Source: Segatella hominis (lineage in GTDB: Bacteria > Bacteroidota > Bacteroidia > Bacteroidales > Bacteroidaceae). Taken from it: DNA of 64,000 nt. Location: NCBI RefSeq assembly GCF_019249725.2, contig NZ_CP137559.1, forward strand, positions 1,983,501 through 2,047,500, in the 5' to 3' direction. The translations under genes were made by a program, and so were the position numbers. The notes under the pieces were generated by a model, which made no database searches, was not told the origin of the DNA, and was given only the letters and a program-made list of their open reading frames with translations. Shown here in pieces: positions 29,976 through 56,308 of this stretch (position 1 is the stretch's first letter; each line of letters starts with the position of its first letter).

Positions 29976-29993
29976 AATCTTTAAAATAAAAAT

Positions 29994-30023
29994 AAAGGGA
30001 GGAGGCATGAACCTCCTCCCTTT
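29994..30023 (-). terminator. Hairpin between large and small lipoproteins, cassette 1
   Basis: On the minus strand AAAGGGAGGAGG (30023-30012) pairs perfectly with CCTCCTCCCTTT (30005-29994), followed by ATTTTTATTTT. It looks like an intrinsic terminator inside the operon, likely to let only part of the transcription through. Confidence 0.85.
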
Positions 30024-33000: not shown

Positions 33001-33544
33001 CGATAGCAGCTTTCTGCTCTTCTGTCATGCCAGGAAGGTTTGCCACCTTGGTTTGCAATGCCTCAAGAGCTTTTGTCTGCTCCTTCAAGTCAGCAGCAAT
33101 AGCCTTGCGAGCAGTCTCTTCATCTGTCAAGCCTTTGTCTAATCTTGCCAAAGTCTCGTTTACTGAAGCTAAATCTGCGTTCAATTTCTTGATGTCGCCC
33201 TTATTTGTGTCGATAGCAGCATTTACCTCTTTCAAGGTATTCTCTGCATTATCGATACGAGACTCAAGGCTTGACACCTTAGATGCGAGGTCTGTTACTG
33301 TCTTTGCGTCAGCTTTGTTTGCAATCGCTGTCTGCAATTGACCATCAGCTGCTTCCAATTGAGACTTAAGATCAGTGATCTCCTTCTCAAGGTCAGTCTT
33401 AATCGTCTTTAAGGTAGACAATGCATCAACTTGGCTCTGCAAGTTATTGATGTCGTCATCGTAATCCTTACAAGACGTAACTGTACTTGTGGCTGCAACA
33501 ACCATCGCACCCATAAGCAAAGCACTAAAAAACTTTCTTTTCAT
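30050..33544 (-). CDS. Large surface lipoprotein, cassette 1 (PL29 N-terminal-like)
   Basis: The protein is 1164 aa. A lipoprotein signal ends in TSCKDYDDD. Then come a coiled coil (~30-240; heptads such as LQSQVDALSTLKTIKTDLEKEITDLKSQ, in several blocks), a domain with LRSLTFIPEAYYWGVEA and YHMNPSTAV (~245-320) that copies 2 and 3 share, and long beta-rich repeats. The C-terminal strand ends in FTVRVPLEVTYEWGTVVTY. The N-terminus resembles Bacteroidota proteins annotated as PL29 N-terminal-like; no lyase domain is seen. It is probably anchored outside the outer membrane. The only consensus promoter of the three cassettes points at this gene, so it is the predicted ON copy in this assembly. 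Confidence 0.8.
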   Translation of the reverse strand: MKRKFFSALLMGAMVVAATSTVTSCKDYDDDINNLQSQVDALSTLKTIKTDLEKEITDLKSQLEAADGQLQTAIANKADAKTVTDLASKVSSLESRIDNAENTLKEVNAAIDTNKGDIKKLNADLASVNETLARLDKGLTDEETARKAIAADLKEQTKALEALQTKVANLPGMTEEQKAAIDKQINDLQKTLQDQITELSSSITGNTTDIKTLKDETIPSLLKQIEGLNKELATLNVFVSSQLRSLTFIPEAYYWGVEALKAITLDYAYITDSKWAAASADKKEAVGYDNCERYDHAEGSTAKDLVAHYHMNPSTAVAPDFVTILDDDKNFETEGHVTRASAAGISVKSFAKNETTGQLDVTLKFNDPNKIKSVKNDSYITVFATQAKYANKQADKDTTVTSDYAAVYKTTITDLVLSHTKTGDENSFTGQENTCVKDFGNKYDNLHSTDNCTLDETKKLHLIPSVFDAMAIKYQDICQYDKTLDLSKLVETHYADANGNHKVLSAQELKDYGLEYKFELTASYEGTNKTSEAAHAAIKGTTFRPQFPKTDGKAYSWDEFDTEKAKELKEGKTEAEFSDYVRSHSVNRQPIVRVTLVDINNGNRVLDYGYIKIRISDKATEEIVKPNVVINYTGDPINYNSECVPAAFKFSTTWNQIEYDVLRTLNLHKAEFDANYENNGQLVINGRDVVKQFKPSTITTTKATEADELNPYVGVVVDNYDAESPETSTFTWTISSSELEKALYGKKSHDPFTVAVKYESKDKTKYPDLYIVLKTGAITIAAPSGEFLKADGSDRIKEYWYKDNGNSANDHGFAEIHAQTLSPEDPNAGSVAKNLDDRFSDVFAGNDIVLSSVTDVTSTKDFAPNKRHYNFVFSASNNGKKFNGIETLSTGDYQVVTWTLGVSADGKKLMAVEKNGVVITAQEIASIDGSYCDATGIKAQKISYAHTVAAHSLLNYVAHNKLADDVLKAIVALKVKTTVCEHELALTNKEFNVRFLRPINVAGVNKELEDAQDNKQMISLYDMVTLSDWRDYGFANHASYWTFYNIKDIRVIGNYNFGTESDQETGIINPFIYTTMTKGGQNNNTLDQKVKQSTISNQVLFRAVKDATATTGKAKYGYLLYENLSSTVQEFTVRVPLEVTYEWGTVVTYADVKIKNTHSNAKRF

Positions 33545-33627
33545 ACGATAAAAATTAATTAAACATTGTATATATTAACTACTTTATTCTATGCTTTTTC
33601 TCTCTATCTCCTGACGAGAGATATTAT
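33545..33627 (-). repeat. 83-bp leader repeat, copy 1, with recombination-like site
   Basis: On the minus strand this runs from ATAATATCTC (33627) to the base before the ATG. It is identical to copy 2 at all but one position and to copy 3 at all but one. The site TATCTC-TCGTCAG-GAGATA lies at 33623-33605 (arms 33618-33623 and 33605-33610, core 33611-33617). Sequence similarity among the three copies stops abruptly just upstream of the left arm, as expected for a crossover point. It is inverted relative to copies 2 and 3. Confidence 0.9.
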
Positions 33628-33636
33628 ATTTCGGTG

Positions 33637-33668
33637 CAAACTTACACAAAAATATTGAAACATGCAAA
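33637..33668 (-). promoter_or_regulatory. Switchable consensus promoter driving cassette 1
   Basis: On the minus strand, TTTG (33668-33665), 20 bases, TAAGTTTG (33644-33637). Transcription should begin near 33630-33633, just outside the shared leader, giving a 5' UTR of about 88 bases. It lies on the recombinase side of the crossover site, so an inversion would move it to another cassette. Confidence 0.85.
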
Positions 33669-33674
33669 TAAATA

Positions 33675-33709
33675 AAAGGATTTTTGAAAAAAAACATCAA
33701 AAATCCTTT
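33675..33709. terminator. Insulating hairpin behind the switchable promoter
   Basis: AAAGGATTTTTGA (33675-33687) pairs perfectly with TCAAAAATCCTTT (33697-33709) around a 9-base A-rich loop. On the minus strand it is followed by TATTTATTTG just before the -33 box. It would block transcription entering the promoter from the recombinase side. Confidence 0.7.
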
Positions 33710-33995
33710 ATTTTCTTGTTGTAGATTGTTGAAACAGGGTAAATATTGCCCTTTTTAACATTTCTGTAACCTTCTTGGCCGTGCCTTATATTTCTGATTA
33801 CTATGTATAAAGCATCAAAATGAATCTTTTTTGATACTTACTCATCAAAATCTATTGAAGAAATGTCATTCACAATTCAATATATTCCTCCTTTTTACGT
33901 TATTAAAGCATAGAATACCTTATTCTCTTAAACAATGAATGCCCTTATTCTTTATTCTATGCATATCATCATATAAAATAGTAAATAAGAATAAT
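33710..33995 (+). promoter_or_regulatory. Upstream region of the recombinase with shared 10-mer
   Basis: No protein gene is seen. GCATAGAATA (33908-33917) and its complement TATTCTATGC (33953-33962) form a perfect inverted repeat ahead of the recombinase start. The same 10-mer occurs once in each 83-bp leader (33585-33594 minus, 35140-35149, 47083-47092). An AT-rich hairpin, ATCAAAA/TTTTTGAT, lies near 33815-33837. No full TTTG/TAnnTTTG promoter is found here. Confidence 0.5.
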
Positions 33996-35060
33996 ATGGT
34001 TTTAAAAATTGAAATTCCAGAGAATATAATATTAAGCAAAAATGACGAACTTGTCATCAGGTTTACAAACACACAGAATGCAACTTGCACTGTACATACT
34101 CTTTCTAATGATTTATCTATCGTCCCTAAGAGTACGGCTGCCGAAAGCCATAACACTTCCCTTCCTTCTTTTGTAGATCAGCTAAGAACACAATTTCTTC
34201 AACAGAACAAACTCAGATTAGCAGAAACTTACCAAAGTGCCTTGAATAGTTTCTGCCTATATATTAATAAGGTGGAAATACTTATGGAAGATATAGACAG
34301 CAAGATGATAGAAGGCTATGAGAGTTATCTCAAACAGAAGAAGCTCACTCTCAATACCATTTCCTTCTACATGCGGATTTTGCGAGCTATCTACAACAGG
34401 GCTGTCAAAAGTGGAACCATTGCAGATAAAAAGCCTTTCAGTCATGTATTCACGACAATGACAAAAACTGCTAAAAGAGCAATACCTATCCAGACCATAC
34501 GGAAAATAGCCCAAGCCCATATCACGAATAAGAACGAAGCATTGGCACGTGACCTTTTCCTGTTCAGCTTTTACACCAGAGGCATGTCGTTTGTAGATAT
34601 AGCGTATCTCAAAAAGACTGACCTCAACAACACGTACCTTATATATAAAAGGAAGAAGACTGGTCAGGAATTAAAAATCGCTTGGCGAAAGGAAATGCAG
34701 GAATTGGTGGATAGAAACAGTTCTAAAGACGGCGTCCACTTGTTTGGCATATTAGATGAAAACAGCGAGAAAAGTCTCCGATTCCAATATCATTATACAC
34801 AATGTATTATCAACACGGCTTTGAAACGATTAGGAAAGCAGCTAAACTTAGGAACCAATCTTACCATGTATGTAGCTCGACATTCTTGGGCTACAATAGC
34901 CCGACAGAAGAATATTCCTCTCAGCGTGATTTGCGATGGCATGGGGCACAATTCAGAGAAAACTACTCAGATATATCTACAGAGTGTGGATGCTGAAGCA
35001 ATTGACCGATGCAACGACAAGCTAATTGCTGCCATTACCAAATCTGACAAAAAGAAATAG
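33996..35060 (+). CDS. Tyrosine-type site-specific recombinase
   Basis: The protein is 354 aa from ATG 33996; an upstream in-frame ATG at 33939 overlaps the inverted repeat and is less likely. After an unusual N-terminal extension come a SAM-like core-binding domain (~60-160; FLQQNKLRLAETYQSALNSF) and the catalytic domain. Catalytic residues visible: Arg in FYTRGMSFVDIAYL (~195), Lys in YKRKKTGQ (~220), the RH of YVARHSWAT (~295), His in GMGHNSEKTTQ (~318) and the nucleophile Tyr in TQIYLQS (~327). No phage or conjugation genes accompany it. It lies between two inverted copies of the leader repeat and is the natural candidate to recombine them, as its relatives do at invertible Bacteroides promoters. 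Confidence 0.88.
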   Translation: MVLKIEIPENIILSKNDELVIRFTNTQNATCTVHTLSNDLSIVPKSTAAESHNTSLPSFVDQLRTQFLQQNKLRLAETYQSALNSFCLYINKVEILMEDIDSKMIEGYESYLKQKKLTLNTISFYMRILRAIYNRAVKSGTIADKKPFSHVFTTMTKTAKRAIPIQTIRKIAQAHITNKNEALARDLFLFSFYTRGMSFVDIAYLKKTDLNNTYLIYKRKKTGQELKIAWRKEMQELVDRNSSKDGVHLFGILDENSEKSLRFQYHYTQCIINTALKRLGKQLNLGTNLTMYVARHSWATIARQKNIPLSVICDGMGHNSEKTTQIYLQSVDAEAIDRCNDKLIAAITKSDKKK

Positions 35061-35106
35061 ATAAAGGACGAAGAAACTTTCTTGGAATACGAACGATAAG
35101 CTATGT

Positions 35107-35189
35107 ATAATATCTCTCGTCAGAAGATAGAGAGAAAAAGCATAGAATAAAGTAGTTAATATATACAATGTTTAATTAATTTTTATCGT
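35107..35189 (+). repeat. 83-bp leader repeat, copy 2, with recombination-like site
   Basis: It starts at ATAATATCTC and runs to the ATG at 35190. The site arms are TATCTC (35111-35116) and aAGATA (35124-35129) around the core TCGTCAG (35117-35123); one arm base differs from the other copies. It is in inverted orientation to copy 1 and direct to copy 3. The 46 bases between the recombinase stop and this repeat hold no TAnnTTTG box. Confidence 0.9.
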
Positions 35190-38681
<3,492 letters not shown>

Positions 38682-38710
38682 TCTAGTGATTCCAAAATAA
38701 AGCTCTAATT

Positions 38711-38748
38711 AGAGGGTGTGCCTAAAAGAGCAGGCACATCCTCTTTTA
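38711..38748 (+). terminator. Hairpin between large and small lipoproteins, cassette 2
   Basis: AGAGGGTGTGCCT (38711-38723) pairs with AGGCACATCCTCT (38732-38744), followed by TTTAATTTT. It occupies the same operon position as the hairpins in cassettes 1 and 3. Confidence 0.85.
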
Positions 38749-38766
38749 ATTTTAAACCATTTTGAA

Positions 38767-39267
38767 ATGAAAAGAATCTATTTGTTTTTATTTTTTGCTG
38801 CCTGCACATTGACTTTCATTTCTTGCAACAAGAAAAAAGAAAGTAGAGAGCAACAAGTGCAAGAGTTCCGTTCTCAGCTGACCGCCGAGGATACAACAAC
38901 TATGCTTCAACTTTGTGACAACGCAATGAAAGAACTGAAGGCTCGTAACATAGACAAAGTTTTAGCTTCACTATATGAATATACAGACTCTACGCAGGAA
39001 GTAAAGCCGTTGAGCGATAAACTCAAGAAAAAATACGCCGCTCAGTTCAAGTTATTCCCAGTGTTGGACTACAAGAGAATTTACTATTCTTTTCAGTTGG
39101 AAGGATGTAATGACGTAAAGTATGAGGTTACATTTGCCACGGCAGAACAAGCTGGAACCGGTGACCCAGCAAAAACGGCATTTATGTTCAATCCTGTGAA
39201 AATCAATGACGAGTGGAAACTTTGCGTTAAGACACCTTCTGAAGATATAGACCAAGAATATCGTTAA
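38767..39267 (+). CDS. Small cassette lipoprotein, copy 2
   Basis: About 166 aa from ATG 38767; earlier in-frame ATG 38716 lies in the terminator hairpin. The signal peptide ends in a lipobox (LTFISCNKK). The mature part has a helix with EDTTTMLQLCDNAMKELKARNIDKVLASLYEY, in two segments, then a beta half with FKLFPVLDYKRIYYSFQLEG and FMFNPVKINDEWKL. The FPVLDY word is shared with copy 3, and NPVxIxxxW with copy 1. Function is unknown. The next gene begins with no gap. Confidence 0.75.
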   Translation: MKRIYLFLFFAACTLTFISCNKKKESREQQVQEFRSQLTAEDTTTMLQLCDNAMKELKARNIDKVLASLYEYTDSTQEVKPLSDKLKKKYAAQFKLFPVLDYKRIYYSFQLEGCNDVKYEVTFATAEQAGTGDPAKTAFMFNPVKINDEWKLCVKTPSEDIDQEYR

Positions 39268-39285
39268 TTGAAAAAACAAAAAATA

Positions 39286-41985
39286 ATGAAACAGCTATTA
39301 TTATTATTGCTTTTTACTTTTTGTGAATTGTCTATGTGGGGACAAAAGACATCTGTCTCCACATTTGACTTCACCTATCCTACGAAGTTGAATCCACAAA
39401 TTTCTATTTCCAACAATTTGACCTCTATAGATGTTTCGACTAGCGTTTTTACCGCAGGTAAATTATCCCTTTCCTTCCAAAAAGGACTGAATCAATATCT
39501 TGGGGCGCAGTATATAACCAATAGCACAAGCGACCCTAAGGAATACTTCCTTAAACTTTGCAGAGGTTGCTCTATGACAATCAGCGGTATGGAAGGTGTA
39601 ACCTTGGATTCCGTAAAATTTGAGGTAGAGAAGGATATGTATGATATCAACCTCTCAGAAAATATGCCTGGAACCCTTTCCGAAGATCGTTATAAGAGGT
39701 TTTGGAGTAAGAATGAAGGGCAAGTAGTAAATGCTATTTCATTCTACAACTCAGGTATAGCTTCTGAAATCAAAAAAATCACTGTTTATTACAAGGAGCC
39801 AATATCAATCATATCGCCAAGCAACACAAGCTTTGCCAGCAAAGTTTTAAGTAGCTTCTTAAGTGAAACTCTTACCTTCGCTTCAAGCATTACCTTAAAT
39901 ACATCAGGTATTGGTGCATACATTTCTGATGCAGAGGGAAACCATCATCCTCTTACATTATCCGCTAAAGGAAATCTAGTAACGTTAAGTGTCTCAAATG
40001 CTATTGCTACTGATGGTCAATATACTATATACATTCCAGAAGGTTGTATCTGGGATGCAAGTGGCTATTGCAACAAAGCGCTAACTTATAATTTTACTAT
40101 TAGCACCCCTAAGAATACTTTAACTTACACTACTGTTACACCTGCAGAGGGTGAAATTGACAAGTTGTCAAGCCCTATTGTTTTGGAATTTGACAAGCAC
40201 TTGATGGCAATAAGTAATAATGAGTTGTATATATACAAAGATGGTGCTAAGGCTGCAAAAGCAAAGATTGAAAGATCTAGCACTTCTTCTAAAGATGTAA
40301 TCATCAGCTTTGATATTCCAGAAGGACTTACAGAAAAGGGTATTTATACGTTAACTATTAATGAGGGCATCATTAAAGACCAATTGGAAGAAACTTATAA
40401 TCCTACTTTCACCCTGACTTACAAAGTTGGATACGAAAAGGAACCAGAAGTTTCCGAAACTTACTTGGCTGCTAAGAATTTGATCAGCAAGACCGGGGTT
40501 GGTTATCCTGCCGATGATAGTGAGGCACGCATTGCCCTAAAGAATCTTGTCGAACAAGTTCCATTTGCTTCTGACGAAGAGCTTACAAAAGCTATGCTAT
40601 CATTTTATAGCGAAAAGAACATAACCATGCCTGAAACTGGAAAATATTACACTATTTCCAATATCAGTCAGAGCAATAAGGTTCTTTATATTTCGGTCGA
40701 TGATGAAGAGAACGTATCATTGACAAGCAATAAAGCTAAGGCTACGGCATTCCTAAGTTCTTGCGAGGATGGCAAATATACATTCCAAACACAAGGAGGC
40801 AAGTATTTCTTTGTCAACGGATTAACTTCAGATAAAGGTAAGTCATTGGATTTAAAGAAGTTCTCTCTATCTGGCGTAGATGACAAATTGGTATTAGGTA
40901 CGTTTAGTATCTATGGTTATTGCACTACAAACTCTGAGGACACAGAATTGAACGCCTATGCTTTGGTAAACCATTCTACAGGTAAAATCTCTACTGATGT
41001 TACTGCTTCGAGCTTGCACTTCAATGAAAAGCAATCAAATGCCTTTATGTTTACCGAAACGGCAAAGCCTGCAGAGGAAGCAACAGCTGTTGATTTCCAC
41101 ATGTCGCTTATTTGCACTGAGTTTACTGCCGATAATGGAATTTTGGAGTTGTCAACTGCAGGATACTCAGGATTGTCTTTGAATCCTGATAAGCAAAATG
41201 CCTCTCTCCTCAACAAAGAGCAGAAGGAGATTGGACAACTCAACATGACTTTAGGAAACAATGGAAATGTGAAGATTCCATTTAGTCAACTTTCCAATGA
41301 CACTTACTATGTTAAGGTTTCAAAAGGAAGCATACTTGGCGTCAAGGATGGGCAAACTTATACAAATAAGGAATTTACAGTTCCATTTACTGTTAAGAAA
41401 CAGGATATAGTTGTTCCAGACAATCCTGAATTTGACTATAGCTACAACAGTTTTTGGTATGTACCTTTTGAGTCTGAATATTATCACGATATTGACTTGA
41501 ATGGATTCAGCATAACAGATGCAGGTGATTTCGACGGTTTCGTTGTCAACGAAAGTAAAATGATAGAATTGGTACAACCTGATACATATCGAACTGTAAA
41601 AACTGGGCATTTCAAGAAGATTGATTACTTGCCAGGCTATCCTGAATACACAAATGCTTACCAGATAGAGTTTGATACCCCAATTAAATCTGGTGACTTG
41701 AAATCAGACAGGTATGTATTTGTCATTCCTATAGGAACATTTGGCGACAACAATTACGCAAAGTACTTGTCTGACCCTACATCAATCTCTCCTAGCAAAT
41801 GCAAGGTCAACCCTGTCATGAGAATCGTCTACAAAGTTGACAACGACAAGGCTACTGGTATTGATGAGATTACAACTGACTCGAATAAACCAAGCATCAT
41901 CTACGATTTGATGGGCCGTCGAGTACAAAACATGTCTCGCCCTGGCATCTACATCGTCAACGGCAAGAAGGTTGTCAAGAAGTAA
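39286..41985 (+). CDS. Secreted multi-domain protein with Ig-like domains and sorting-like tail
   Basis: About 899 aa from ATG 39286; a TTG at 39268 would add six residues ahead of the signal peptide (KQLLLLLLFTFCELSMWGQ). The middle includes two SbsA-type Ig-like (Big_5-like) regions: near residue 170-270 (ISPSNTSFASKVLSSFLSETL) and 280-380 (VTPAEGEIDKLSSPIVLEFDKH). A beta-trefoil-like stretch follows around 450-520 (YTISNISQSNKVLYISVDD). The tail, IYDLMGRRVQNMSRPGIYIVNGKKVVKK in pieces, is a type-A sorting-like C-terminus. It replaces the FISUMP/DUF1573 cargo of cassette 1. Its ligand is unknown. Confidence 0.75.
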   Translation: MKQLLLLLLFTFCELSMWGQKTSVSTFDFTYPTKLNPQISISNNLTSIDVSTSVFTAGKLSLSFQKGLNQYLGAQYITNSTSDPKEYFLKLCRGCSMTISGMEGVTLDSVKFEVEKDMYDINLSENMPGTLSEDRYKRFWSKNEGQVVNAISFYNSGIASEIKKITVYYKEPISIISPSNTSFASKVLSSFLSETLTFASSITLNTSGIGAYISDAEGNHHPLTLSAKGNLVTLSVSNAIATDGQYTIYIPEGCIWDASGYCNKALTYNFTISTPKNTLTYTTVTPAEGEIDKLSSPIVLEFDKHLMAISNNELYIYKDGAKAAKAKIERSSTSSKDVIISFDIPEGLTEKGIYTLTINEGIIKDQLEETYNPTFTLTYKVGYEKEPEVSETYLAAKNLISKTGVGYPADDSEARIALKNLVEQVPFASDEELTKAMLSFYSEKNITMPETGKYYTISNISQSNKVLYISVDDEENVSLTSNKAKATAFLSSCEDGKYTFQTQGGKYFFVNGLTSDKGKSLDLKKFSLSGVDDKLVLGTFSIYGYCTTNSEDTELNAYALVNHSTGKISTDVTASSLHFNEKQSNAFMFTETAKPAEEATAVDFHMSLICTEFTADNGILELSTAGYSGLSLNPDKQNASLLNKEQKEIGQLNMTLGNNGNVKIPFSQLSNDTYYVKVSKGSILGVKDGQTYTNKEFTVPFTVKKQDIVVPDNPEFDYSYNSFWYVPFESEYYHDIDLNGFSITDAGDFDGFVVNESKMIELVQPDTYRTVKTGHFKKIDYLPGYPEYTNAYQIEFDTPIKSGDLKSDRYVFVIPIGTFGDNNYAKYLSDPTSISPSKCKVNPVMRIVYKVDNDKATGIDEITTDSNKPSIIYDLMGRRVQNMSRPGIYIVNGKKVVKK

Positions 41986-41994
41986 ATATAGAAA

Positions 41995-42022
41995 GTCTTC
42001 TAGCTGCTCGCAGCTAGAAGAC
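41995..42022 (+). repeat. Perfect 28-bp palindrome upstream of cassette 2 ompA
   Basis: GTCTTCTAGCTGC (41995-42007) and GCAGCTAGAAGAC (42010-42022) are exact complements with TC between. It is followed by AAAAAAG rather than T, so it is not a standard terminator on the plus strand. It may be an mRNA-stabilising hairpin separating the OmpA message. Confidence 0.65.
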
Positions 42023-42069
42023 AAAAAAGAGAAACAATAAGTATTACATAATAAAACAATTAAACAGTT

Positions 42070-43203
42070 ATGAAAAAGTCTAAAGTTTTATTGGCTGCTG
42101 CTTTGATGGGTATGAGCACAGCTGCTATGGCTCAGGCCACTTACACAGATTCCGAGGAGAACGTGTACACTTTCCAAAAGCATTGGTTCCTAGACCTCCA
42201 AGGTGGTGCTCAGTACACACTCGGCGAAGCTAAGTTTGGTGACTTGATTTCTCCTAACGTACAATTAGGACTTGGTTATCAGTTCAACCCAGTATTCGGC
42301 ATGCGCCTCCAGGCTAACGGATGGCAGAGCAAGGGTGGATGGGCTGCTTATCGTGATAAAATCGGTGATGCGCCATTCTCTGCTGACTATAAATTCAACT
42401 ACGTGGCTCCAGGTTTGGATTTCATGTTCAACTTGAGCAATCTCTTCTGTGGCTGGAATCCTAACCGTGTGTTCAACGTGACTGCCTTCGTCGGTGGTGG
42501 TGCCAACATCGCCTGGGGTAACGACGAGGCCAATGAAATTGGTGCACACATCAAGGACCTCGACAAGTACAACTTGTTGTATCTCTGGGATGGTACCAAG
42601 ATACGTCCATTCGGTCGTGCAGGTCTCGACTTAGAGTTTAAGGTAAGCAAGTCTGTAAGCATCATGTTGGAGGGTAATGCCAACATCACTACCGACAAGT
42701 ACAATTCCAAGAACGCAGACAACCCAGACTGGTACTTCAACGCACTCGCTGGTCTTCGCATCAACCTCGGCAAGAGCCACACCAAGACTGAGCCTGTGAA
42801 GGAAGTTCCTGCTCCACGTCCAGTAGAGGAATATGTAAAGCCAGAACCTAAACCAGCTCCAGTAGAGGAGAAGAAGGTTGAGGAGATTCGTCGTGACGTA
42901 TTCTTCGTTATCAACTCCAATAAGATTCGTGAGTCTGAGGACGCTAAGATCAAGGAAGTAGTTGACTACTTGAACCAGTATCCTGAGGCAAAGGTAGTCG
43001 TAACAGGTTATGCAGATGCTGGTACAGGTAACAATACCATCAACGACCGCATTTCTGCTAAGCGTGCTGCAGCTGTAGTAAAGGTTCTCAAAGAGAAATA
43101 TGGTATTGAAGAATCCAGAATCACTGAGGATTCAAAGGGTGCTCGTGTTCAACCATTCTCTGAGAATGACAAGAACCGTGTTTCTATCATGGTTGCAAAA
43201 TAA
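42070..43203 (+). CDS. OmpA-family outer-membrane protein, cassette 2
   Basis: The protein is 377 aa with signal peptide KKSKVLLAAALMGMSTAAMAQ. The barrel region (HWFLDLQGGAQYTLGEAKFG) and linker (APRPVEEYVKPEPKPAPVEEKK) lead into the OmpA domain with FFVINSNKIRESEDAKIKEVVDYLNQYPEAKV, in two pieces, and NTINDRISAKRAAAV. From about residue 200 to the GTGN of the OmpA domain it is almost identical, in DNA as well, to the cassette 3 protein. Elsewhere it differs, which suggests exchange between copies. It ends the cassette before a bidirectional terminator. Confidence 0.9.
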   Translation: MKKSKVLLAAALMGMSTAAMAQATYTDSEENVYTFQKHWFLDLQGGAQYTLGEAKFGDLISPNVQLGLGYQFNPVFGMRLQANGWQSKGGWAAYRDKIGDAPFSADYKFNYVAPGLDFMFNLSNLFCGWNPNRVFNVTAFVGGGANIAWGNDEANEIGAHIKDLDKYNLLYLWDGTKIRPFGRAGLDLEFKVSKSVSIMLEGNANITTDKYNSKNADNPDWYFNALAGLRINLGKSHTKTEPVKEVPAPRPVEEYVKPEPKPAPVEEKKVEEIRRDVFFVINSNKIRESEDAKIKEVVDYLNQYPEAKVVVTGYADAGTGNNTINDRISAKRAAAVVKVLKEKYGIEESRITEDSKGARVQPFSENDKNRVSIMVAK

Positions 43204-43218
43204 AGATTGAAACAATAA

Positions 43219-43298
43219 CCATTCTCTAAAAGTGAGAATGGCAAAAAACAAAGCGAGGTTTCCATAGGAGTCAAATCCATCCTGGAAACCTCGCTTTT
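43219..43298. terminator. Tandem hairpins between cassette 2 and AAA genes
   Basis: The first stem is CCATTCTC (43219-43226)/GAGAATGG (43234-43241). The second, stronger stem is AAAGCGAGGTTTCC (43250-43263)/GGAAACCTCGCTTT (43284-43297). It serves both convergent genes. Confidence 0.85.
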
Positions 43299-43299
43299 A

Positions 43300-45045
43300 C
43301 TATACCTCATCCATTCGAAAGAGTTTCCAACCATTGAACTGCATGATAATCTTATGCAATTGGGTGCCTTGGCGCAGAGCCTCAACCCTTGGCGCCTCAG
43401 CATAATGCATAATTTGTTCTATGGCATCATCCCATTGCTTCTTGATGGCTGCCTCGTATGCTTCCAGGCTCATTCCCTTCTCTCTCTTGGGAATCAATTT
43501 CAACTCGATGATATAGCTATGTTTGGAAGCATAATGGGTCAAGTCTGGCAACAGGAAGAAGTCACAATAACCATGATTCAATTCCAACTCTGGTGCCGTC
43601 ATGTAGTAAGCATTCAAGTTGAGGTACGCCATGAAGAAACCTTGTATATTTCGCTCCGCCTCGATGCCGTCACGAACGGAAGATACCTTGGCGTACGAAT
43701 CTGCCAGGAACTGCAAAGCGTCATGCCACTTGCCATCGTATGCCATGTCATAATAATTATCAGTTAGTGCCTCAGTATCTAAAGAGGCCTTTTCTTCGTA
43801 CTTTTCCAACAAATACTCATAATACTGCTTGCGCACATTATTATTAGGAATTCCTAATATCATTTTGGTTCCACGAGTACCCTTGATGGTCAGCATTCCA
43901 TAATAGAAAAGCAAACTAGCAAACATGCGAGGATTTGTCAAAGTCTCGGCAGGAAACGTTGTTTCTATATTCGATACGATTTCCCCCTTTTCGGCAATCT
44001 CATAGATAATACCCTTACGGTTACCATCCAGTTTGTCCAATTGGAGAAGTTTCTTCATTTTATTGTAATCCGTCTTGGTATTCGGGTCTATCATCTGCTT
44101 TGGGGCTTCTCCTGTTTCTGCATAGTTTCGAAGAAAATAAAGCACCATATCACAATTGAACACCTTGCTTTGAGTCCGCAATGCATCCTCGGAGAAACAA
44201 TAGTTGTCATACCAAGGCTTCATCTCTGCGATTACTGATTCTATATCGCAATCAGGACGAACTTTTCCAAAGCTCTTGAAATATTCAAACATCTCTCGAA
44301 CTTCCTCTGTGGAAAAGCCAAGCATCTGGTTAAACTTAGGGTTTGTAGAGATATGCCAACCTACATTGAATCCACTCGTTAAATCATCTAAGGTAACAGG
44401 GCTGACTCCCGTCATAAAGATACGAGTGAACATACCTTTGAACACCTTGAATATCTCCCTGTAAAAACCCTTTGCGTGTGTTAATGCCCAATACACTTTC
44501 TCGCCATGCTCATTGAGTACGACATTGGTAAAGTTGTCATATTCGTCAACAATAAGATACAGTTGCATATTAGCGTCCTTCGCCTCTGCATCTATCATAT
44601 TTAGTTTATCTACTGCACTATATGCTTTCTTAATACTCTCAACTGTTTCAGGCCGATAAGCATCAGCATACTTTTCAATGAAATTATTGAGCCTTATATT
44701 GCAATAACTGTTGAATTTTTCTTTCAATTCCTTGATATCTCCTCCTATTTTCGAGAAATCCAAGTAGAGGATTTGGAATTTATTGTGAAGTTCAGTCGCA
44801 TGCTTTCCAATCCACAAATTGCCAAACAACTCTTGGAATTCATCTTTTCTATTGAGGTCATAATAAGCGCACATCATGCTAGTCCAAAGGCTCTTGCCAA
44901 AACGACGAGGACGAATGAAAAACAGATTGCGAGGTTGCTCTTCCAACTTTGGAAGATACATGGTTTTATCCACATAATACATGTTGGAACGTATTATCTC
45001 AATGAAATCAGAGACACTATAGGGTATTTCCTTTATCTTGTTCAT
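43300..45045 (-). CDS. AAA-ATPase-like / PD-(D/E)XK nuclease family protein (copy B)
   Basis: The protein is 581 aa. The N-terminal AAA-ATPase_like domain shows YYVDKTMYLPKLE, the Walker A-like [11 protein letters not shown] (~43-53), Walker B LYLIVDEYDNF and a sensor-like FMTGVSPVTLDDL. The C-terminal PDDEXK_9-like domain shows ELELNHGYCDFFLLPD and YIIELKL. It is a tandem near-duplicate of copy C, which ends 25 bases upstream, probably in one transcript. It converges on cassette 2. Families of this kind are multicopy in Prevotella and Bacteroides, and no function is established. Confidence 0.85.
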   Translation of the reverse strand: MNKIKEIPYSVSDFIEIIRSNMYYVDKTMYLPKLEEQPRNLFFIRPRRFGKSLWTSMMCAYYDLNRKDEFQELFGNLWIGKHATELHNKFQILYLDFSKIGGDIKELKEKFNSYCNIRLNNFIEKYADAYRPETVESIKKAYSAVDKLNMIDAEAKDANMQLYLIVDEYDNFTNVVLNEHGEKVYWALTHAKGFYREIFKVFKGMFTRIFMTGVSPVTLDDLTSGFNVGWHISTNPKFNQMLGFSTEEVREMFEYFKSFGKVRPDCDIESVIAEMKPWYDNYCFSEDALRTQSKVFNCDMVLYFLRNYAETGEAPKQMIDPNTKTDYNKMKKLLQLDKLDGNRKGIIYEIAEKGEIVSNIETTFPAETLTNPRMFASLLFYYGMLTIKGTRGTKMILGIPNNNVRKQYYEYLLEKYEEKASLDTEALTDNYYDMAYDGKWHDALQFLADSYAKVSSVRDGIEAERNIQGFFMAYLNLNAYYMTAPELELNHGYCDFFLLPDLTHYASKHSYIIELKLIPKREKGMSLEAYEAAIKKQWDDAIEQIMHYAEAPRVEALRQGTQLHKIIMQFNGWKLFRMDEV

Positions 45046-45070
45046 AATTGTTCGATTTATAAACTGAAAA

Positions 45071-46819
45071 TTAATTTACTTCATCCATCCGAAAGAGTTT
45101 CCATCCATCGAACTGCATGATGATCTTATGCAATTGGGTACCTTGGCGAAGAGCCTCAACCCTTGGAGCCTCAGCATAATGCTTAATTTGCACCTCGGCA
45201 GCATCCCATTGCTGCTGGATGGCAGCCTCGTATGTCTCTTGACTCATACCTTTTTCTTTTTTGGGGATGAGTTTTAATTCCAAGATGTAGCAGTGCTTGG
45301 AGGCATAATGGGTCAAGTCTGGCAACAAGAAGAAGTCACAATAACCATGATTCAATTCCAACTCTGGTGCCGTCATGTAGTAAGCATTCAAGTTGAGGTA
45401 CGCCATGAAGAAACCTTGTATATTTCGCTCCGCCTCGATGCCGTCACGAACGGAAGATACTTTGGCGTACGAATCTGCCAGAAACTGCAAAGCGTCATGC
45501 CACTTGCCATCGTAGGCCATGTCATAAAAATAGTCTTCAAGTTGATTCGTATCCAAGGAAGCCTTTTCTTCATACTGCTCTAACAAATACTCGTAGTACT
45601 GCTTGCGTACATTATTATTAGGAATGCCCAATATAAGGCGACTTCCACGAGTACCCTTGATGGTCAACATTCCATAATAAAACAACAGACTGACAAACAT
45701 ATTGGGATTTGTCAAAGTCTCGGCTGGAAATGTCGTCTCTAAATTCGATATGATTTTCCCCTTCTCGGCTATTTCTAGTATAACTCCCTTACGATTGCCA
45801 TCCAGTTTGTCCAATTGAAGGAGTTTCTTCATCTTGTTATAATCAGTCTTGGTGTTTGGGTCTATCATCTCTTCAGGAGCTTCGCCAGTCTCAGCATAGT
45901 TCCGAAGATAATAAAGAACCATGTCGCAATTGAATACCTTGCTTTGGGTTTGCAAAGCATTCTTTGAGAAGCAATAGTTGTCATACCAAGGCTTCATTTC
46001 TGCGATTACAGATTCTACATCGCAATCGGGACGAACTTTTCCTGCACTCTTGAAATATTCAAACATCTCACGTACATCCTCGGCAGAGAACCCCAACATC
46101 TGATTGAAGGCTGGCTTTGTAGATATGTGCCAACCTATATTGAAGCCACTGGTTAGGTCGTCCAGGGTCACAGGACTGACTCCTGTCATGAAGATGCGAG
46201 TGAACATACCCTTGAACACCTTGAAAATCTCTCGATAAAAGCCTTTCGCATGGGTCAATGCCCAATACACCTTCTCGCCATGCTCGTTGAGCACGACATT
46301 GGTAAAGTTGTCATACTCGTCAATGATAAGATATAGCTGCATGTTTGCATCCTTTGCTTCGGTATCTATCATATTCAGCTTATCCACTGCGGTAGGGGCA
46401 CTCTTTATTTTCTCGACAATTTCAGGGCGGTAGGCCCTCTTATATCTTTCTATGAAATTATCGAGTCGGATGTTGCAATAATTATTGAAATTCTCCTTCA
46501 AATCCTTTATATCTCCCCCGATTTTAGAAAAATCCAAGAACAAGACCTGAAACTTTCCTCGGTAAGGTGTTGGATGGGAGCCAATCCATAATTTGCCGAA
46601 CAGTTCCTCAAACCTATCAGACTGGTTGATGTCATAGTAAGCACACATCATGCTCAGCAAGAGGCTCTTGCCGAAGCGACGAGGGCGTATGAAGAACAAG
46701 CTATCCGCCTCCTCTTCCAACTTAGGGATATACATTGTCTTGTCAACATAATATTGATTTCTCTTTATTATATCGACAAAGTCAGAAACACCGTAAGGTA
46801 TACGTTTCACATTCTCCAT
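45071..46819 (-). CDS. AAA-ATPase-like / PD-(D/E)XK nuclease family protein (copy C)
   Basis: The protein is 582 aa, with the same architecture as copy [50 protein letters not shown], and the C-terminal GYCDFFLLPD...YILELKL nuclease-type motif. Long stretches are identical to copy B (for example AEMKPWYDNYCFS and DALQFLADSYAKVSSVRDG), indicating recent duplication. A full consensus promoter precedes it. It is divergent from cassette 3, with only 313 bases between. Confidence 0.85.
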   Translation of the reverse strand: MENVKRIPYGVSDFVDIIKRNQYYVDKTMYIPKLEEEADSLFFIRPRRFGKSLLLSMMCAYYDINQSDRFEELFGKLWIGSHPTPYRGKFQVLFLDFSKIGGDIKDLKENFNNYCNIRLDNFIERYKRAYRPEIVEKIKSAPTAVDKLNMIDTEAKDANMQLYLIIDEYDNFTNVVLNEHGEKVYWALTHAKGFYREIFKVFKGMFTRIFMTGVSPVTLDDLTSGFNIGWHISTKPAFNQMLGFSAEDVREMFEYFKSAGKVRPDCDVESVIAEMKPWYDNYCFSKNALQTQSKVFNCDMVLYYLRNYAETGEAPEEMIDPNTKTDYNKMKKLLQLDKLDGNRKGVILEIAEKGKIISNLETTFPAETLTNPNMFVSLLFYYGMLTIKGTRGSRLILGIPNNNVRKQYYEYLLEQYEEKASLDTNQLEDYFYDMAYDGKWHDALQFLADSYAKVSSVRDGIEAERNIQGFFMAYLNLNAYYMTAPELELNHGYCDFFLLPDLTHYASKHCYILELKLIPKKEKGMSQETYEAAIQQQWDAAEVQIKHYAEAPRVEALRQGTQLHKIIMQFDGWKLFRMDEVN

Positions 46820-47049
46820 GTTTATTTTATTTTCTGTTTTGCTGCAAAATTAAGCAAAAATATCGTAACCTCAAAACTTTTCGCTTCATTTCTTTTATTA
46901 TGCAGCTTTGTCTTCGAAACGGGAGTCTGATTTATTTTTACATTTCTTGGGGTGATTTGCCTTGCGCAAGCTTCAACCTATCCTCCTTTTCGTCCATAAA
47001 GATCTACATCTGTACCTCCAAAACACATAGATTCTCCATATCAGCGACG
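46820..47049. other. Region between AAA copy C and leader copy 3
   Basis: It contains the minus-strand promoter at 46845-46875 but no plus-strand TAnnTTTG box. Cassette 3 therefore has no recognisable promoter of its own in this arrangement. Confidence 0.6.
46845..46875 (-). promoter_or_regulatory. Promoter for AAA copies C and B
   Basis: On the minus strand, TTTG (46875-46872), 19 bases, TAATTTTG (46852-46845); a full consensus 25 bases from the start of copy C. Confidence 0.75.
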
Positions 47050-47132
47050 ATAATATCTCTCGTCAGGAGATAGAGAGAAAATGCATAGAATAAAGTAGTT
47101 AATATATACAATGTTTAATTAATTTTTATCGT
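47050..47132 (+). repeat. 83-bp leader repeat, copy 3, with recombination-like site
   Basis: It runs from ATAATATCTC to the ATG at 47133. The site arms are TATCTC (47054-47059) and GAGATA (47067-47072) around the core TCGTCAG (47060-47066). One base differs from copy 1 (AAAATG instead of AAAAAG). It is direct to copy 2 and inverted to copy 1. Confidence 0.9.
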
Positions 47133-50100
47133 ATGAAAAGAAAGTATTTTAGTGTATTGCTTATGGCTGCTATGACTGTGGCATCCACAAGTATGGTTAC
47201 TTCTTGTAAGGATTACGATGATGACATCAATAATGTACAGACACAAATTGATGCCGCCAACGACCTTATAAAGAAGTTGGACACCCAAGCTTCTACTTTG
47301 CAGACTGCCGTTACCACAGCACAGTCTACTGCGGACGCAGCTAAAACAGCTGCTGCAGAGGCTGCCACTGCTGCTAAGAACGCTCAGGCTACAGGTGACG
47401 AGGCATTGGCTACAGCTAAGACTGCTCAGGCTGCCGCTGAGGCTGCCAAGGCTGCTGCCGCTGAAGCTCAAAAGGCTGCTATAGAGGCTGCTACTAAGCA
47501 GGTTAATGACTTGAAGGCAGAGATTCAGACTGCTCTAGACAACAAGGTTGACGTTGCAACATTCAACACTGCCGTTGCTAAGCTCGAAGGCGATATCGCC
47601 GGTATCGATGCTAAGTTGAACACTTTGGGTGAGGATGTTAAGAACAACCAGAAGGAAATCACCACTGCTAAGGAAGCTATCGCAACTTTGGAGGCTGCAC
47701 AGAAGAATGCCGAGGTTCAGATTGCCGCTTTGGAGAAATTCAAGGCTACCTTGGAGTCAGAGACTATCCCTGGCCTTAATGATGCTATCAAGGCTAACGG
47801 CGTAGAAATCGAAGGCGTTAAGAAGAGCGTTGCTGACCTTAAAGATGCTACAACTAAGGCTCAGGAGAAGTTGGCTAATGATATTGCCAAGGTAGCTGCT
47901 GACCTTACCGCTTTGCAGGGTACCGTAGATGCTATCGACGCTGCTTACAAAGCTGGTGATGAGAATCTCCAGAAGCAGATAGATGATTTATTGAAGACTG
48001 TCAAGGCTAACAGTGGCAAGCACGATCAGGATGTTTCTGCTATCGATGCCAAGATTGCGGCTCTCGATAAGCTCATCTCTGATAATAAGTCTGAGTTGAA
48101 GAACTATACTGACGATGCTGTTAAGGCTGCAAAGAAAGACTTGCAAGGGCAAATCGATGCTTTGGCTAAGCTTAATATCGACGGTGTAGAGCAGGGCTTG
48201 GCTGACTGGATGAAGCAAATCAACGACAAGTTCGACAATTACTATACATCTGGCCAGATTGATGAGAAGATTAATACTTTGACAGACAACTACAAGCAGG
48301 CTATTGCTGATGCTATCGAGGAAGCTTCTGAAAACTTGACTTCTAGCATGAACAGTATCCGTACCGAGTTGCTCGGCGAGATCAACCTCCTCAACATCTT
48401 GTGTGGCCAGAGATTGACAAGCATGGTATTTGCTCCAACAACATACATTGATGGTATCGAGGCTATCAAGTTCTCTACCCTCAACTACTATGACTGGGGT
48501 ACTGACGCAACTGCTTGGGAGGCAGATGCTCCTACAACTAAGACTTATACTTATATCAACGACAAAGAGACAACGGTTAAGTACTACTTGAACCCTGCTA
48601 CAGTTTCTTTGGATGCTATCGATAAGTTCGACTTCGTTTCTCAGGATGCTACTAATGAGAAGAAGTTGACTCGTGCTGGTGCGGAGGCTCCTATCAAGGT
48701 GGCAGGCCAATCTCTCAAGAATGGCGTTCTTACCTTGAACGTACAGAAGACAGGCAATGCTCCATTGATGTCTGAGACTTCTTATGGCTGGGGTACTACA
48801 TACAGCAAGTTCCCTATCGTTGCTTTGCGGGCAAAGTTGACAGGCGAGGCTGTTACAGACAAGGACGATGCTGACAACTTGTTCGTTTACTCAGACTGGG
48901 CTCGTCTCTATGAGTCAACAGAGCGTCCTTACATCCACAATACTCAAGCTAAGGATGATGCAAATAATGTTATCGAGAATAACATAGGCAAGACGAATCC
49001 TGCAGCTTCTCACTTCTGGAGCTTCTCTGAGGCTTATGCTCGCAAGAAGAAGACTGACAAATTGCCTACAGCAGAGAACAGCAACTGCATCACCAAGAAG
49101 GTTGACTATGATAAGAGCATCGATTTGACTTCACTTGTAGAGGTGTGCGACAAGAGCGGTGCTATCTATGACCTCAACAAATTTGGCTTGAAGTTCGAGT
49201 TCCATATCATGGAGTACAACTTGCTCAATCAGGGTAGTACAACAGACTGGACTAACCAGCAGTACTTCGCTAAGTTGAAGGAAGATGGCAAGACATTGGT
49301 AGCTACAGCTCGCAATGGTGCTGAGGGCAACCGTGATGCTATCGGTCGTCAGCCAATGATTCAGGTTGTTTTGAAGGATGTGAACGATCCTAAGCACGAG
49401 AAGGTAGTTGATGTACGTTACTTCAAGATTCAGTGGGTTGATGTACAGGAGACTGTAGATTATGGCCCAATCGCTAAGGACTTCGAGGATGCATATAAGT
49501 GTGGTGAGATATACCAGTACATCATCGGTGAAGAGGCTATGAACAATGTTTATGCTACCGCAAACATGTCTCGTGATGAGTTCCATAAGTCTTACACTGT
49601 CAACCAGGCATTATTCCCATCTTACAATGACGTTGTAAACAATACTAATAGTTTTGATACAGGCAAGACTAACTTCAAGGATTTGAAGGACAATACTGCT
49701 GATGGTCAGACACACAACTTGAAGTGGACTATCAACTCTAACTACTTTGCTATGACTCAGGCAGAGTATGAGGCAGGTGAGGCTACACGTACAGTTTACG
49801 GTTACTTCTACAAGACTTCTAACCGTAATAGCCGAATCATCTTCTCTATGACTGTGAAGTGGACTATCAATAAGATGGCTTATGCTACAGGTGTTAACTA
49901 TAGCCAGGAGCAGTGGGAACCATCAGGCTTGACCATGGCTAACGGTTTGACCAACGCAGACAAGAAGAGATTTATCAACCCAGCTTTGCGTTCTGACAAC
50001 ATTTATGGTACAGTAAACTACCGCGATTGCCAGATTATTGGTGATTTGAAGGCTGGTTACATCAACAACGGTAAGGTTCCTGAAACCGTTCAGGCTCTCG

Positions 50101-50964: not shown

Positions 50965-51504
50965 ATGAAAATTATCAATAAGTTATTCATTGGTTGCTTC
51001 GTGCTAGGTAGTATTTTCTTGGCATCATGCTCTAGTTGTTCCAATAGTAAGGAGAAGGGTGGAAGAAGTGCTAACCAAACAGACACCGTGCCAACTTTTT
51101 GCAAGGCAGACACTACGCAAGTGTTGAAAATGGCAGAGGACTATTTGGAAGCATTGAAAAATCAAAAATATGACGAAGCTCTTTCCAAGCTGAACCTGAT
51201 TCTGAATGATAGCGTTAAGCCTCTACCGGAAAAAGACAAGCAAATGATTATTCGTCAGCAGCAAGTTTTCCCAGTGTTGGATTACCATTTGGAGTCATTC
51301 AAGTTCATCAATGAACATCGAGTTGAGGTGACCTATAGCATCGAGTTCTTCAAGAAAGAAGACCCTAATGATCCTATCCAGAACACGATCCGTATCACCT
51401 TTGCCCCTCAGAGAATCAACGCTCAGTGGTATTTGGCCTTGATGGACAAATCTTATGTTACCTATACTCCTGAAAAGCAAAAGGACATGGAGACGATTGA
51501 CTAA
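50965..51504 (+). CDS. Small cassette lipoprotein, copy 3
   Basis: The protein is 179 aa. The signal peptide ends in a lipobox (IFLASCSSCSN). The mature part has a helical half (QVLKMAEDYLEALKNQKYDEAL) and a beta half with QQVFPVLDYHLESFKFI and ITFAPQRINAQWYLAL. It shares FPVLDY with copy 2 and the R/K-I-N-x-x-W-x-L ending with copies 1 and 2. Function is unknown. ompA copy 3 follows after 20 bases. Confidence 0.75.
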   Translation: MKIINKLFIGCFVLGSIFLASCSSCSNSKEKGGRSANQTDTVPTFCKADTTQVLKMAEDYLEALKNQKYDEALSKLNLILNDSVKPLPEKDKQMIIRQQQVFPVLDYHLESFKFINEHRVEVTYSIEFFKKEDPNDPIQNTIRITFAPQRINAQWYLALMDKSYVTYTPEKQKDMETID

Positions 51505-54716: not shown

Positions 54717-54731
54717 TGTTTTTATTGTTTC

Positions 54732-56210: not shown

Positions 56211-56308
56211 TAATTCTTAAAAAATAGCCTCCCGGCTGGGTTAGTAAATCTTATTATTATTATTTATTAATCAATATCGTTAAGAATAATACGCCACATC
56301 AATTCTCC

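What the first reader, a model, noticed from the sequence alone, without database searches (positions are those of the whole stretch)
33545..47133. Recombinase-linked promoter switch that may select one of three surface-protein operons
Three large surface lipoprotein genes (33544 minus, 35190 plus, 47133 plus) share an 83-bp leader differing by at most two bases. Each leader starts abruptly at the small palindrome TATCTC-TCGTCAG-GAGATA (33605-33623, 35111-35129, 47054-47072), and sequence just upstream is unrelated. A tyrosine recombinase gene (33996-35060) sits between the two inverted copies. A single full consensus promoter (33637-33668) lies on the recombinase side of site 1. Recombination of sites 1 and 2 would flip about 1.5 kb and turn on cassette 2. 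Recombination of sites 1 and 3 would flip about 13.4 kb and turn on cassette 3. Sites 2 and 3 are direct, so they could delete cassette 2 and the AAA genes. Tyrosine recombinases that flip promoters are known in Bacteroides; a three-way selector carrying its own recombinase and promoter is the inferred novelty.
Basis: partly seen in the sequence, partly recalled or inferred. Interest (0 to 1): 0.93.

Follow-up and report, generated by a model that had tools for sequence, protein, structure and literature searches.

The report
One promoter, three swappable surface coats
In this Prevotella-related bacterium three neighbouring operons for predicted surface proteins start with the same short DNA site but only one has a promoter-like sequence in front, and a recombinase encoded beside it would likely flip the DNA so that the cell switches from one coat protein to another; related species show the same kind of layout in flipped states.

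Summary
Three copies of TATCTC-TCGTCAG-GAGATA head 83-bp leaders differing at no more than 2 bases, before three large lipoprotein genes. A tyrosine recombinase lies between sites 1 and 2. Only site 1 has a consensus promoter (TTTG-N20-TAAGTTTG) facing it, on the recombinase side. The window's genome is not held, so inversion was not seen in this strain. Relatives give strong comparative support. In one pair of close relatives the promoter-recombinase segment lies in opposite orientations, changing at the site, and the promoter faces different cassettes. Two single-contig same-genus genomes carry 17-site arrays of fimbrial-type lipoproteins beside a recombinase about 49% identical to this one; each has one promoter, exactly where cassette orientation reverses (1 left/16 right; 9 left/8 right). 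That is what inversion-only selection leaves behind. The window is most likely a three-way selector of S-layer-type operons within a broader Prevotella group (2-way, 3-way, 17-way). It works like Mycoplasma Vpma, but with whole operons and the recombinase inside the promoter segment: a new variant of a known kind. Deletion between sites 2 and 3 is untested; long direct-site arrays argue against it being frequent.

The parts
33605..33623 (-). site 1 (TATCTC-TCGTCAG-GAGATA), promoter side
   Evidence: exact match, 0.02 expected in the window
33545..33627 (-). 83-nt leader of cassette 1
   Evidence: differs at 1 position from each other copy
33637..33668 (-). predicted promoter TTTG-N20-TAAGTTTG facing site 1 and cassette 1 (consensus recalled)
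   Evidence: the match next to the site has N20 in each of 10 modules
33667..33717 (.). strong hairpin just upstream of the promoter, possible insulator/terminator
   Evidence: inverted repeat; MFE -17.4 (+ strand), z -5.8
33905..33962 (.). inverted pair of a 13-mer from the leader (AAAGCATAGAATA at 33905-33917; CTTTATTCTATGC at 33950-33962) before the recombinase gene; role unknown
33996..35060 (+). tyrosine recombinase gene (354 aa) inside the predicted invertible segment
   Evidence: PF13102, PF00589; R195, K221, R295, H318, Y327 invariant in 13 aligned homologues (assignment as catalytic recalled)
35111..35129 (+). site 2 (one mismatch in the right arm)
35107..35189 (+). 83-nt leader of cassette 2
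47054..47072 (+). site 3
47050..47132 (+). 83-nt leader of cassette 3
30050..33544 (-). cassette 1: large lipoprotein (1164 aa, SCKDYDDD)
29466..30008 (-). cassette 1: small lipoprotein-like protein (180 aa)
   Evidence: no Pfam match; sequence start seen
29075..29512 (-). cassette 1: DUF1573 protein (145 aa)
28562..29065 (-). cassette 1: Por_Secre_tail protein (167 aa)
26373..28565 (-). cassette 1: Lcl_C protein, weak FISUMP match (730 aa)
25206..26339 (-). cassette 1: OmpA-family outer-membrane protein (377 aa)
35190..38681 (+). cassette 2: large lipoprotein (1163 aa, DUF4988)
38716..39267 (+). cassette 2: small lipoprotein-like protein (183 aa)
   Evidence: 28% identical to the cassette 3 counterpart
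39268..41985 (+). cassette 2: Big_5 protein (905 aa)
42070..43203 (+). cassette 2: OmpA-family protein (377 aa)
   Evidence: 84-87% identical between cassettes
43300..45045 (-). AAA-ATPase/PDDEXK_9 gene between cassettes 2 and 3 (passenger)
45071..46819 (-). second AAA-ATPase/PDDEXK_9 gene (passenger)
47133..50879 (+). cassette 3: large lipoprotein (1248 aa)
   Evidence: no Pfam match
50965..51504 (+). cassette 3: small lipoprotein-like protein (179 aa)
51525..52658 (+). cassette 3: OmpA-family protein (377 aa)

Best explanation
Three neighbouring operons, each headed by a predicted surface-lipoprotein gene and ended by an OmpA-family gene, begin with the same leader and palindromic site, but only one has a consensus promoter in front of it, and the tyrosine recombinase encoded beside that promoter would invert the DNA between oppositely oriented sites and so likely hand the single promoter to one operon at a time. 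In the sequenced state operon 1 is predicted ON. Recombination of sites 1 and 2 (about 1.5 kb) would turn on operon 2, and recombination of sites 1 and 3 (about 13.4 kb) would turn on operon 3. Because the palindrome lies in the predicted 5' untranslated region, just after the predicted start, exchange there would keep the transcript start the same for every operon. Shown: sites, leaders, the single promoter match, a recombinase with invariant candidate catalytic residues, and opposite states in related loci. Inferred: that this recombinase acts on these sites, that promoter and lipoproteins behave as predicted, and that the proteins form alternative S-layer-type coats anchored by the OmpA-like partner. 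All operons point away from the promoter segment; inversion preserves this, so the promoter can move through the set without losing operons.
For: Site count against chance. Leaders 81-82 of 83 identical pairwise, with unrelated upstream flanks. Single promoter match 13 nt before site 1 and none facing sites 2-3. Recombinase domains and invariant R195/K221/R295/H318/Y327 in 13 homologues. Reachable-state enumeration. Comparative inversion: L085 vs L129, promoter segment 93.3% identical over 268 nt but in opposite orientation with outer flanks collinear; L085's promoter-adjacent cassette is 85.4% identical to L129's promoterless cassette and 56.4% to L129's promoter-adjacent one. Arrays: 17 sites each in two single-contig genomes, 34 of 34 pointing away from the one promoter, which sits at 1|16 in one and 9|8 in the other. 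The recombinase lies between inverted leader copies in 5 further S-layer-type loci (L085, L129, L126, L114, L117), in all 5 with the promoter on its 5' side as in the window; in L114 the right-hand lipoprotein frame was not identified. In each of 10 listed modules the promoter match next to the site has N20, the pattern allowing N18-21.
Against: No read-level or strain-level evidence of inversion in the window's own species; own assembly not held. The one near-conspecific contig (L002) joins the recombinase 3' side to a fourth cassette ending in about 100 bp of the cassette 1 flank, but further flank differs, so it does not prove inversion. In the L085/L129 pair the far (recombinase 3') end of the segment is not clean: L129 has about 2.8 kb between recombinase and site where L085 has about 0.3 kb, and the left cassettes are only 55.6% alike. 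The leader was found in only 1 of 398 same-genus genomes. Of 53 recombinase-centred regions fetched, 10 were recognised as surface-lipoprotein modules of this type; for L076, L079, L118, L119 no second site was found. Site 2 carries a mismatch. The usual box II His is Tyr in all 13 recombinases aligned. One SusC-type relative (L091) has the promoter on the recombinase 3' side. In the recombinase tree the selector-linked rows do not form one clade.
Confidence: 0.83

Rival explanations
1. Two-way switch plus archive: the recombinase flips only the 1.5-kb segment between sites 1 and 2, and cassette 3 is a distant copy that is rarely or never selected.
For: 6 of the 10 related modules recognised have two cassettes or two inverted leaders (L085, L129, L126, L117, L114, L071). 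The 1-3 inversion is 13.4 kb and carries two AAA genes.
Against: Site 3 is a perfect match and its leader is intact. In G310 the promoter sits 9 cassettes deep, so selection over many kb is indicated.
Confidence: 0.1
2. The shared leaders come from gene duplication and gene conversion, and rearrangements are caused by general homologous recombination across the 122-bp inverted repeats; the nearby recombinase is incidental.
For: The repeat is 122 nt at 96% and the OmpA genes are also 84-87% identical. In L114 the inverted repeat is 92 bp at 100% and no palindrome was picked out.
Against: Homologous recombinases sit in the same place relative to sites in other species. In L085/L129 the switch point lies at a short palindrome followed by diverged leader. 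Promoter placement is precise.
Confidence: 0.05
3. A frozen relic: the inversions happened in the past and the locus is now static, with cassettes 2 and 3 silent or read from unrecognised promoters.
For: No alternative junction was seen in this species; the lipoprotein gene of L002 is interrupted by an IS66-like insertion (naming by sequence look).
Against: The recombinase frame is intact and 97% identical in L002; leaders are near-identical; all three lipoprotein and OmpA frames are open.
Confidence: 0.05
4. Mobile-cassette (integron-like) system: the sites serve to excise and insert whole cassettes as circles rather than to invert.
For: Sites 2 and 3 are direct; arrays of many direct sites exist; L002 carries a different cassette next to the same recombinase flank.
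Against: Orientation reverses exactly at the single promoter in both complete arrays and the promoter segment lies in opposite orientations in two relatives; excision alone would not create left-facing cassettes.
Confidence: 0.04

Closest known systems
Vpma/Vsp loci of Mycoplasma agalactiae and M. bovis (PMC2268961: abstract and passages seen)
   Same: One unique promoter, a neighbouring tyrosine recombinase, recombination sites in the 5' untranslated region, alternative surface lipoproteins brought to the promoter by inversion.
   Different: Single genes rather than multi-gene operons; a distant phylum with different recombinase and sites; here the recombinase lies inside the promoter segment, and an OmpA-type partner is switched with each lipoprotein.
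Phase-variable S-layer/OmpA loci of Bacteroides thetaiotaomicron (BT1926-27 and others; passages of PMC12548429, PMC12118408, PMC12578637)
   Same: Large surface lipoprotein plus outer-membrane beta-barrel/OmpA partner, site-specific integrase nearby, promoter inversion.
   Different: There, by the passages, the S-layer operons are each preceded by a promoter flanked by a 19-bp repeat (CCGTTACC...) and switch on or off; here three linked operons compete for one promoter and the site is different. Protein homology to BT1927 itself was not tested.
Shufflon-type SusC/SusD switching by Tsr0667 in Bacteroides fragilis (passages of PMC4747536 and PMC11852207; the 2009 primary paper is not held)
   Same: Recombinase-driven multiple inversions giving alternative outer-membrane proteins in the same phylum.
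   Different: Different gene class; one recombinase acts on several distant regions; fine layout could not be compared.
Campylobacter fetus S-layer and Mycoplasma pulmonis vsa systems (named in passages; C. fetus details recalled)
   Same: Inversion brings alternative surface-protein genes to an expression site.
   Different: C. fetus inversion is RecA-dependent (recalled); vsa moves a promoter plus the first 714 nt of coding sequence (passage).

Membership tests
Tyrosine site-specific recombinase | Integrase catalytic domain and R-K-[H]-R-[H/W]-Y residues | tested here: met
   PF00589; R195, K221, R295, H318, Y327 invariant in 13; box II His is Tyr292 in all 13 (residue roles recalled)
Single-promoter inversion selector (Vpma type, as a mode of working) | One promoter for several alternative genes | tested here: met
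   only site 1 has a consensus promoter facing it; one per 17 sites in each of two related arrays; promoter activity itself untested
Single-promoter inversion selector (Vpma type, as a mode of working) | Near-identical recombination sites in the 5' untranslated region of each gene | tested here: met
   83-nt leaders with at most 2 differences
Single-promoter inversion selector (Vpma type, as a mode of working) | Alternative orientations observed | tested here: inconclusive
   seen between relatives, not in this species
Single-promoter inversion selector (Vpma type, as a mode of working) | Switching lost when the recombinase is disrupted | not testable with these tools
   needs a mutant
BT1927-type S-layer/OmpA phase-variable locus | Surface lipoprotein followed by outer-membrane partner, with nearby recombinase | tested here: met
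   OmpA gene ends all three operons
BT1927-type S-layer/OmpA phase-variable locus | Each operon has its own IR-flanked invertible promoter | tested here: not met
   no promoter facing sites 2 and 3; promoter shared; so not filed as a member
BT1927-type S-layer/OmpA phase-variable locus | Protein forms a surface lattice | not testable with these tools
   model mean pLDDT 72, pTM 0.46; PDB matches of low TM-score only
R64-type shufflon | Inversions swap C-terminal coding segments of one gene | tested here: not met
   sites lie upstream of whole genes
Integron cassette array | IntI-type integrase | tested here: not met
   integron integrase model far below its cut-off, 23.9 vs 265 bits
Integron cassette array | attC-type cassette sites | not tested
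   no attC search was run; the sites seen are short palindromes 5' of genes

The most novel reading that the evidence does not exclude
Prevotella carry a general 'outward array' selector: one promoter segment, often carrying its own recombinase, from which any number of surface-protein cassettes (2, 3, 17, perhaps 27 or more) point away on both sides, and a recombinase that is strongly biased to inversion walks the promoter through the set without ever losing a cassette. It serves whole S-layer-type operons, fimbrial adhesins and SusC/SusD receptors alike.
Probability: 0.6. Interest if true: 0.82.

Novelty: new variant of a known kind. Interest (0 to 1): 0.7.

Why it matters
[quoted passage not shown] A single-promoter selector of protein coats would give Prevotella another route to surface variation, possibly relevant to phage resistance and host recognition (function inferred). 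The outward-pointing rule makes states readable from any assembled genome, and long-read data could measure switching directly. Arrays of 17 cassettes with one promoter would be a large surface repertoire. My searches listed no paper whose title or abstract opening describes such a selector in Prevotella; the library is partial, several listings were capped (for example 20 of 47, 10 of 40), and I read only passages of a few papers.

Tried and rejected
Own-genome search for further site copies: assembly not held. Viral contigs: no relative of the recombinase or exact leader match. Site pattern with up to 2 mismatches in 149 genomes: 12 matched, one place each; apart from G001 none of the 11 is followed by the leader, so they were taken as chance. 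L002 as proof of inversion: rejected as decisive, because identity with the cassette 1 flank ends after about 100 bp and the relative of the window's neighbouring AAA gene lies on another contig with other neighbours (the BLAST part printed nothing, so only its ORF list and sequence were used). A 13-mer near the recombinase start as a general regulatory site: seen only in the window, not in L085, L129, L126, L117. A general promoter-upstream hairpin: only the window stands out clearly. Automated palindrome scan missed L085, L129, L114 and L117, so counts are lower bounds. Structure of the cassette 2 lipoprotein: moderate model; PDB matches by Foldseek, among them an S-layer protein at E 5.7e-10, had TM-scores of 0.14 or less by query length and were treated as uninformative. 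DUF4988 family search: of three genomes G001 gave a match below the cut-off and G025, G310 none; of the 14 named controls only Corynebacterium glutamicum rang, and whether a Bacteroides is among them is not told. A recombinase tree of 41 rows placed the window with L114 but did not unite the selector recombinases.
Full report
What is there. Three palindromic sites TATCTC-TCGTCAG-GAGATA (33605-33623 minus, 35111-35129 plus with one mismatch, 47054-47072 plus) are the only matches with up to three mismatches in the window, with 0.02 expected. Each lies in an 83-nt leader; the leaders differ at 1, 1 and 2 positions, and the 100 nt before them are only 26-31% identical. Each leader runs into a large lipoprotein gene whose first 49 or so residues are alike and whose remainder is about 22-34% identical where it aligns at all. 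Each operon then has a small lipoprotein-like gene, optional extra genes and an OmpA-family gene; the OmpA proteins are 84-87% identical. A 354-aa tyrosine recombinase lies between sites 1 and 2.

Promoter. The match TTTG-N20-TAAGTTTG at 33637-33668 on the minus strand ends 13 nt before site 1. None faces sites 2 or 3 from the 300 nt upstream; one at 46845-46875 lies upstream of site 3 on the opposite strand and points away from it. The consensus is recalled as the Bacteroidota -33/-7 form. Ten such matches (N17-22) occur on both strands of the window, so 0.004 would be expected this close to any of the three sites. A strong hairpin lies just upstream.

State space. Enumerating inversions between oppositely oriented sites from the present order gives four states. 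One cassette is at the promoter in every state, and cassettes 2 and 3 are each one step from the present state. Inversion between a left and a right site keeps all cassettes pointing away from the promoter segment.

Near relative. The nearest genome held (G001; contig L002, an uncultured Prevotella MAG) has the recombinase at 97% identity and the same 3' flank and leader, but a fourth lipoprotein cassette interrupted by an IS66-like insertion, ending in an OmpA gene and about 100 bp of the flank of window cassette 1. The sequence beyond differs, and the relative of the window's AAA gene lies on another contig with other neighbours. This shows that the junction carries different cassettes but does not prove inversion. 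The leader occurs in 1 of 398 same-genus genomes.

Distant relatives. Recombinase homologues at E of 1e-60 or better occur in 75 of 398 same-genus genomes. I fetched 53 recombinase-centred regions (20, 15, 18, the rest of those calls being extensions). Ten were recognised as surface-lipoprotein modules with a single facing promoter and inverted sites or leaders. L085, L129, L126, L114 and L117 have the recombinase between inverted leader copies and the promoter on its 5' side, as in the window; in L114 the repeat is 92 bp at 100%, no palindrome was picked out and the right-hand lipoprotein frame was not identified. L071 has two cassettes with ATPase-like genes (by sequence look) in the segment. 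L066 and L115 are arrays. L116 and L080 hold a single cassette plus recombinase between inverted sites, with the promoter outside and facing the recombinase 3' end, a predicted OFF state. The other 43 were not recognised as such, with unequal scrutiny: they include a truncated array (L111), a short sister of L129 (L128), two with promoter plus palindrome beside the recombinase that were not followed up (L098, L130), SusC-type loci, and L076, L079, L118 and L119, where the recombinase neighbours such a lipoprotein but no second site was found.

Inversion seen between relatives. In L085 and L129 the outer parts are collinear (92% and 88%) while the recombinase segment is reversed (84%). The 268 nt between recombinase start and site are 93.3% identical in opposite orientation. 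The promoter-adjacent cassette of L085 matches the promoterless cassette of L129 (85.4%) and not its promoter-adjacent one (56.4%). On the promoter side the change falls at the palindrome. The other side is less clean: L129 has about 2.8 kb between recombinase and site where L085 has about 0.3 kb, the left cassettes are only 55.6% alike, and the left lipoprotein of L085 has a broken frame.

Arrays. In two single-contig genomes, G025 and G310, a recombinase about 49% identical to the window's adjoins a row of lipoproteins; three of them that I tested have glycine-rich (PF12810) or fimbrillin-like domains, and the neighbours tested in G025 are FimA-type fimbrial genes. Each array has 17 sites and one promoter. 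G025 has 1 left and 16 right; G310 has 9 left and 8 right; all 34 point away from the promoter. G441, whose recombinase neighbourhood matches that of G025 at 83-91%, has 27 matches to an array protein on one contig, all in one direction, and its recombinase contig starts exactly at the site. This pattern is expected if the promoter moves by inversion only.

What the coats are. The cassette 2 lipoprotein has 998 relatives at E of 1e-10 or better among the 7983 candidates scored and a DUF4988 match. A model from 30 sequences is of moderate confidence and beta-rich, with only low-TM PDB matches. S-layer function is inferred by analogy with the B. thetaiotaomicron S-layer lipoprotein and its beta-barrel partner (passages), not tested.

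Known or new. The way of working is that of Mycoplasma Vpma and related systems named. The S-layer/OmpA gene pair resembles the B. thetaiotaomicron loci, but those are described with a promoter before each operon. I did not find a published single-promoter S-layer selector in Prevotella in searches, which list titles and abstract openings from a partial library with capped lists; the B. fragilis SusC/SusD shufflon paper is not held. I rate it a new variant of a known kind.

Limits. No reads, no expression data, no biochemistry. The catalytic box II His is Tyr in all 13 aligned recombinases (roles recalled). Whether the three cassettes are equally selected is unknown.

Noticed in passing
G025:C1:2381563-2413307 (L066, L106, L110) and G310:C1:1956505-1990619 (L115, L131, L132): 17-site single-promoter arrays of fimbrillin/glycine-rich lipoproteins beside a homologous recombinase (and, in G025, FimA-type fimbrial genes); orientation flips at the promoter in both.
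   Followed up: yes
G441:C15:537-48262 and G441:C5:1 (L111): A related genome has 27 matches to an array protein on one contig, all in one direction, and its recombinase contig begins exactly at the site, probably an assembly break at the repeat.
   Followed up: partly
L090, L091, L092, L094, L095: Recombinases of the same broad family lie between divergent SusC/SusD-like operons; L091 and L092 show one promoter beside a palindrome on one side only, so two-way selectors may also serve nutrient receptors (SusC/SusD naming by sequence look, recalled).
   Followed up: partly
window 43300-46819, 23541-25106; L071 16105-18005; G025:C1:2396190-2397509: ATPase genes sit inside or next to the selectors as passengers: AAA-ATPase_like/PDDEXK_9 in the window, ATPase-like by sequence look in L071 and G025.
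   Followed up: partly
window 33905-33962: A 13-mer of the leader recurs as an inverted pair before the recombinase gene; possible recombinase or regulator binding site, not seen in four related modules.
   Followed up: partly
window 53289-57655; L080, L083, L125, L126: The locus abuts an asparaginyl-tRNA synthetase-type gene; 4 of 24 recombinase loci checked also carry its relative, suggesting a shared chromosomal slot.
   Followed up: partly
L098 678; L130 9259: Promoter plus palindrome beside the recombinase in two more loci whose cassettes were not examined.
   Followed up: no
L002 3208-5825: IS66-like insertion (by sequence look) interrupts the lipoprotein of the near-conspecific cassette.
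   Followed up: no
L085 7935-9127: The promoterless left lipoprotein has a broken frame in this assembly.
   Followed up: no
L048 (G001:C336) 3100-3157: The contig end looks like a sequencing adapter (recalled), a reminder of MAG quality.
   Followed up: no
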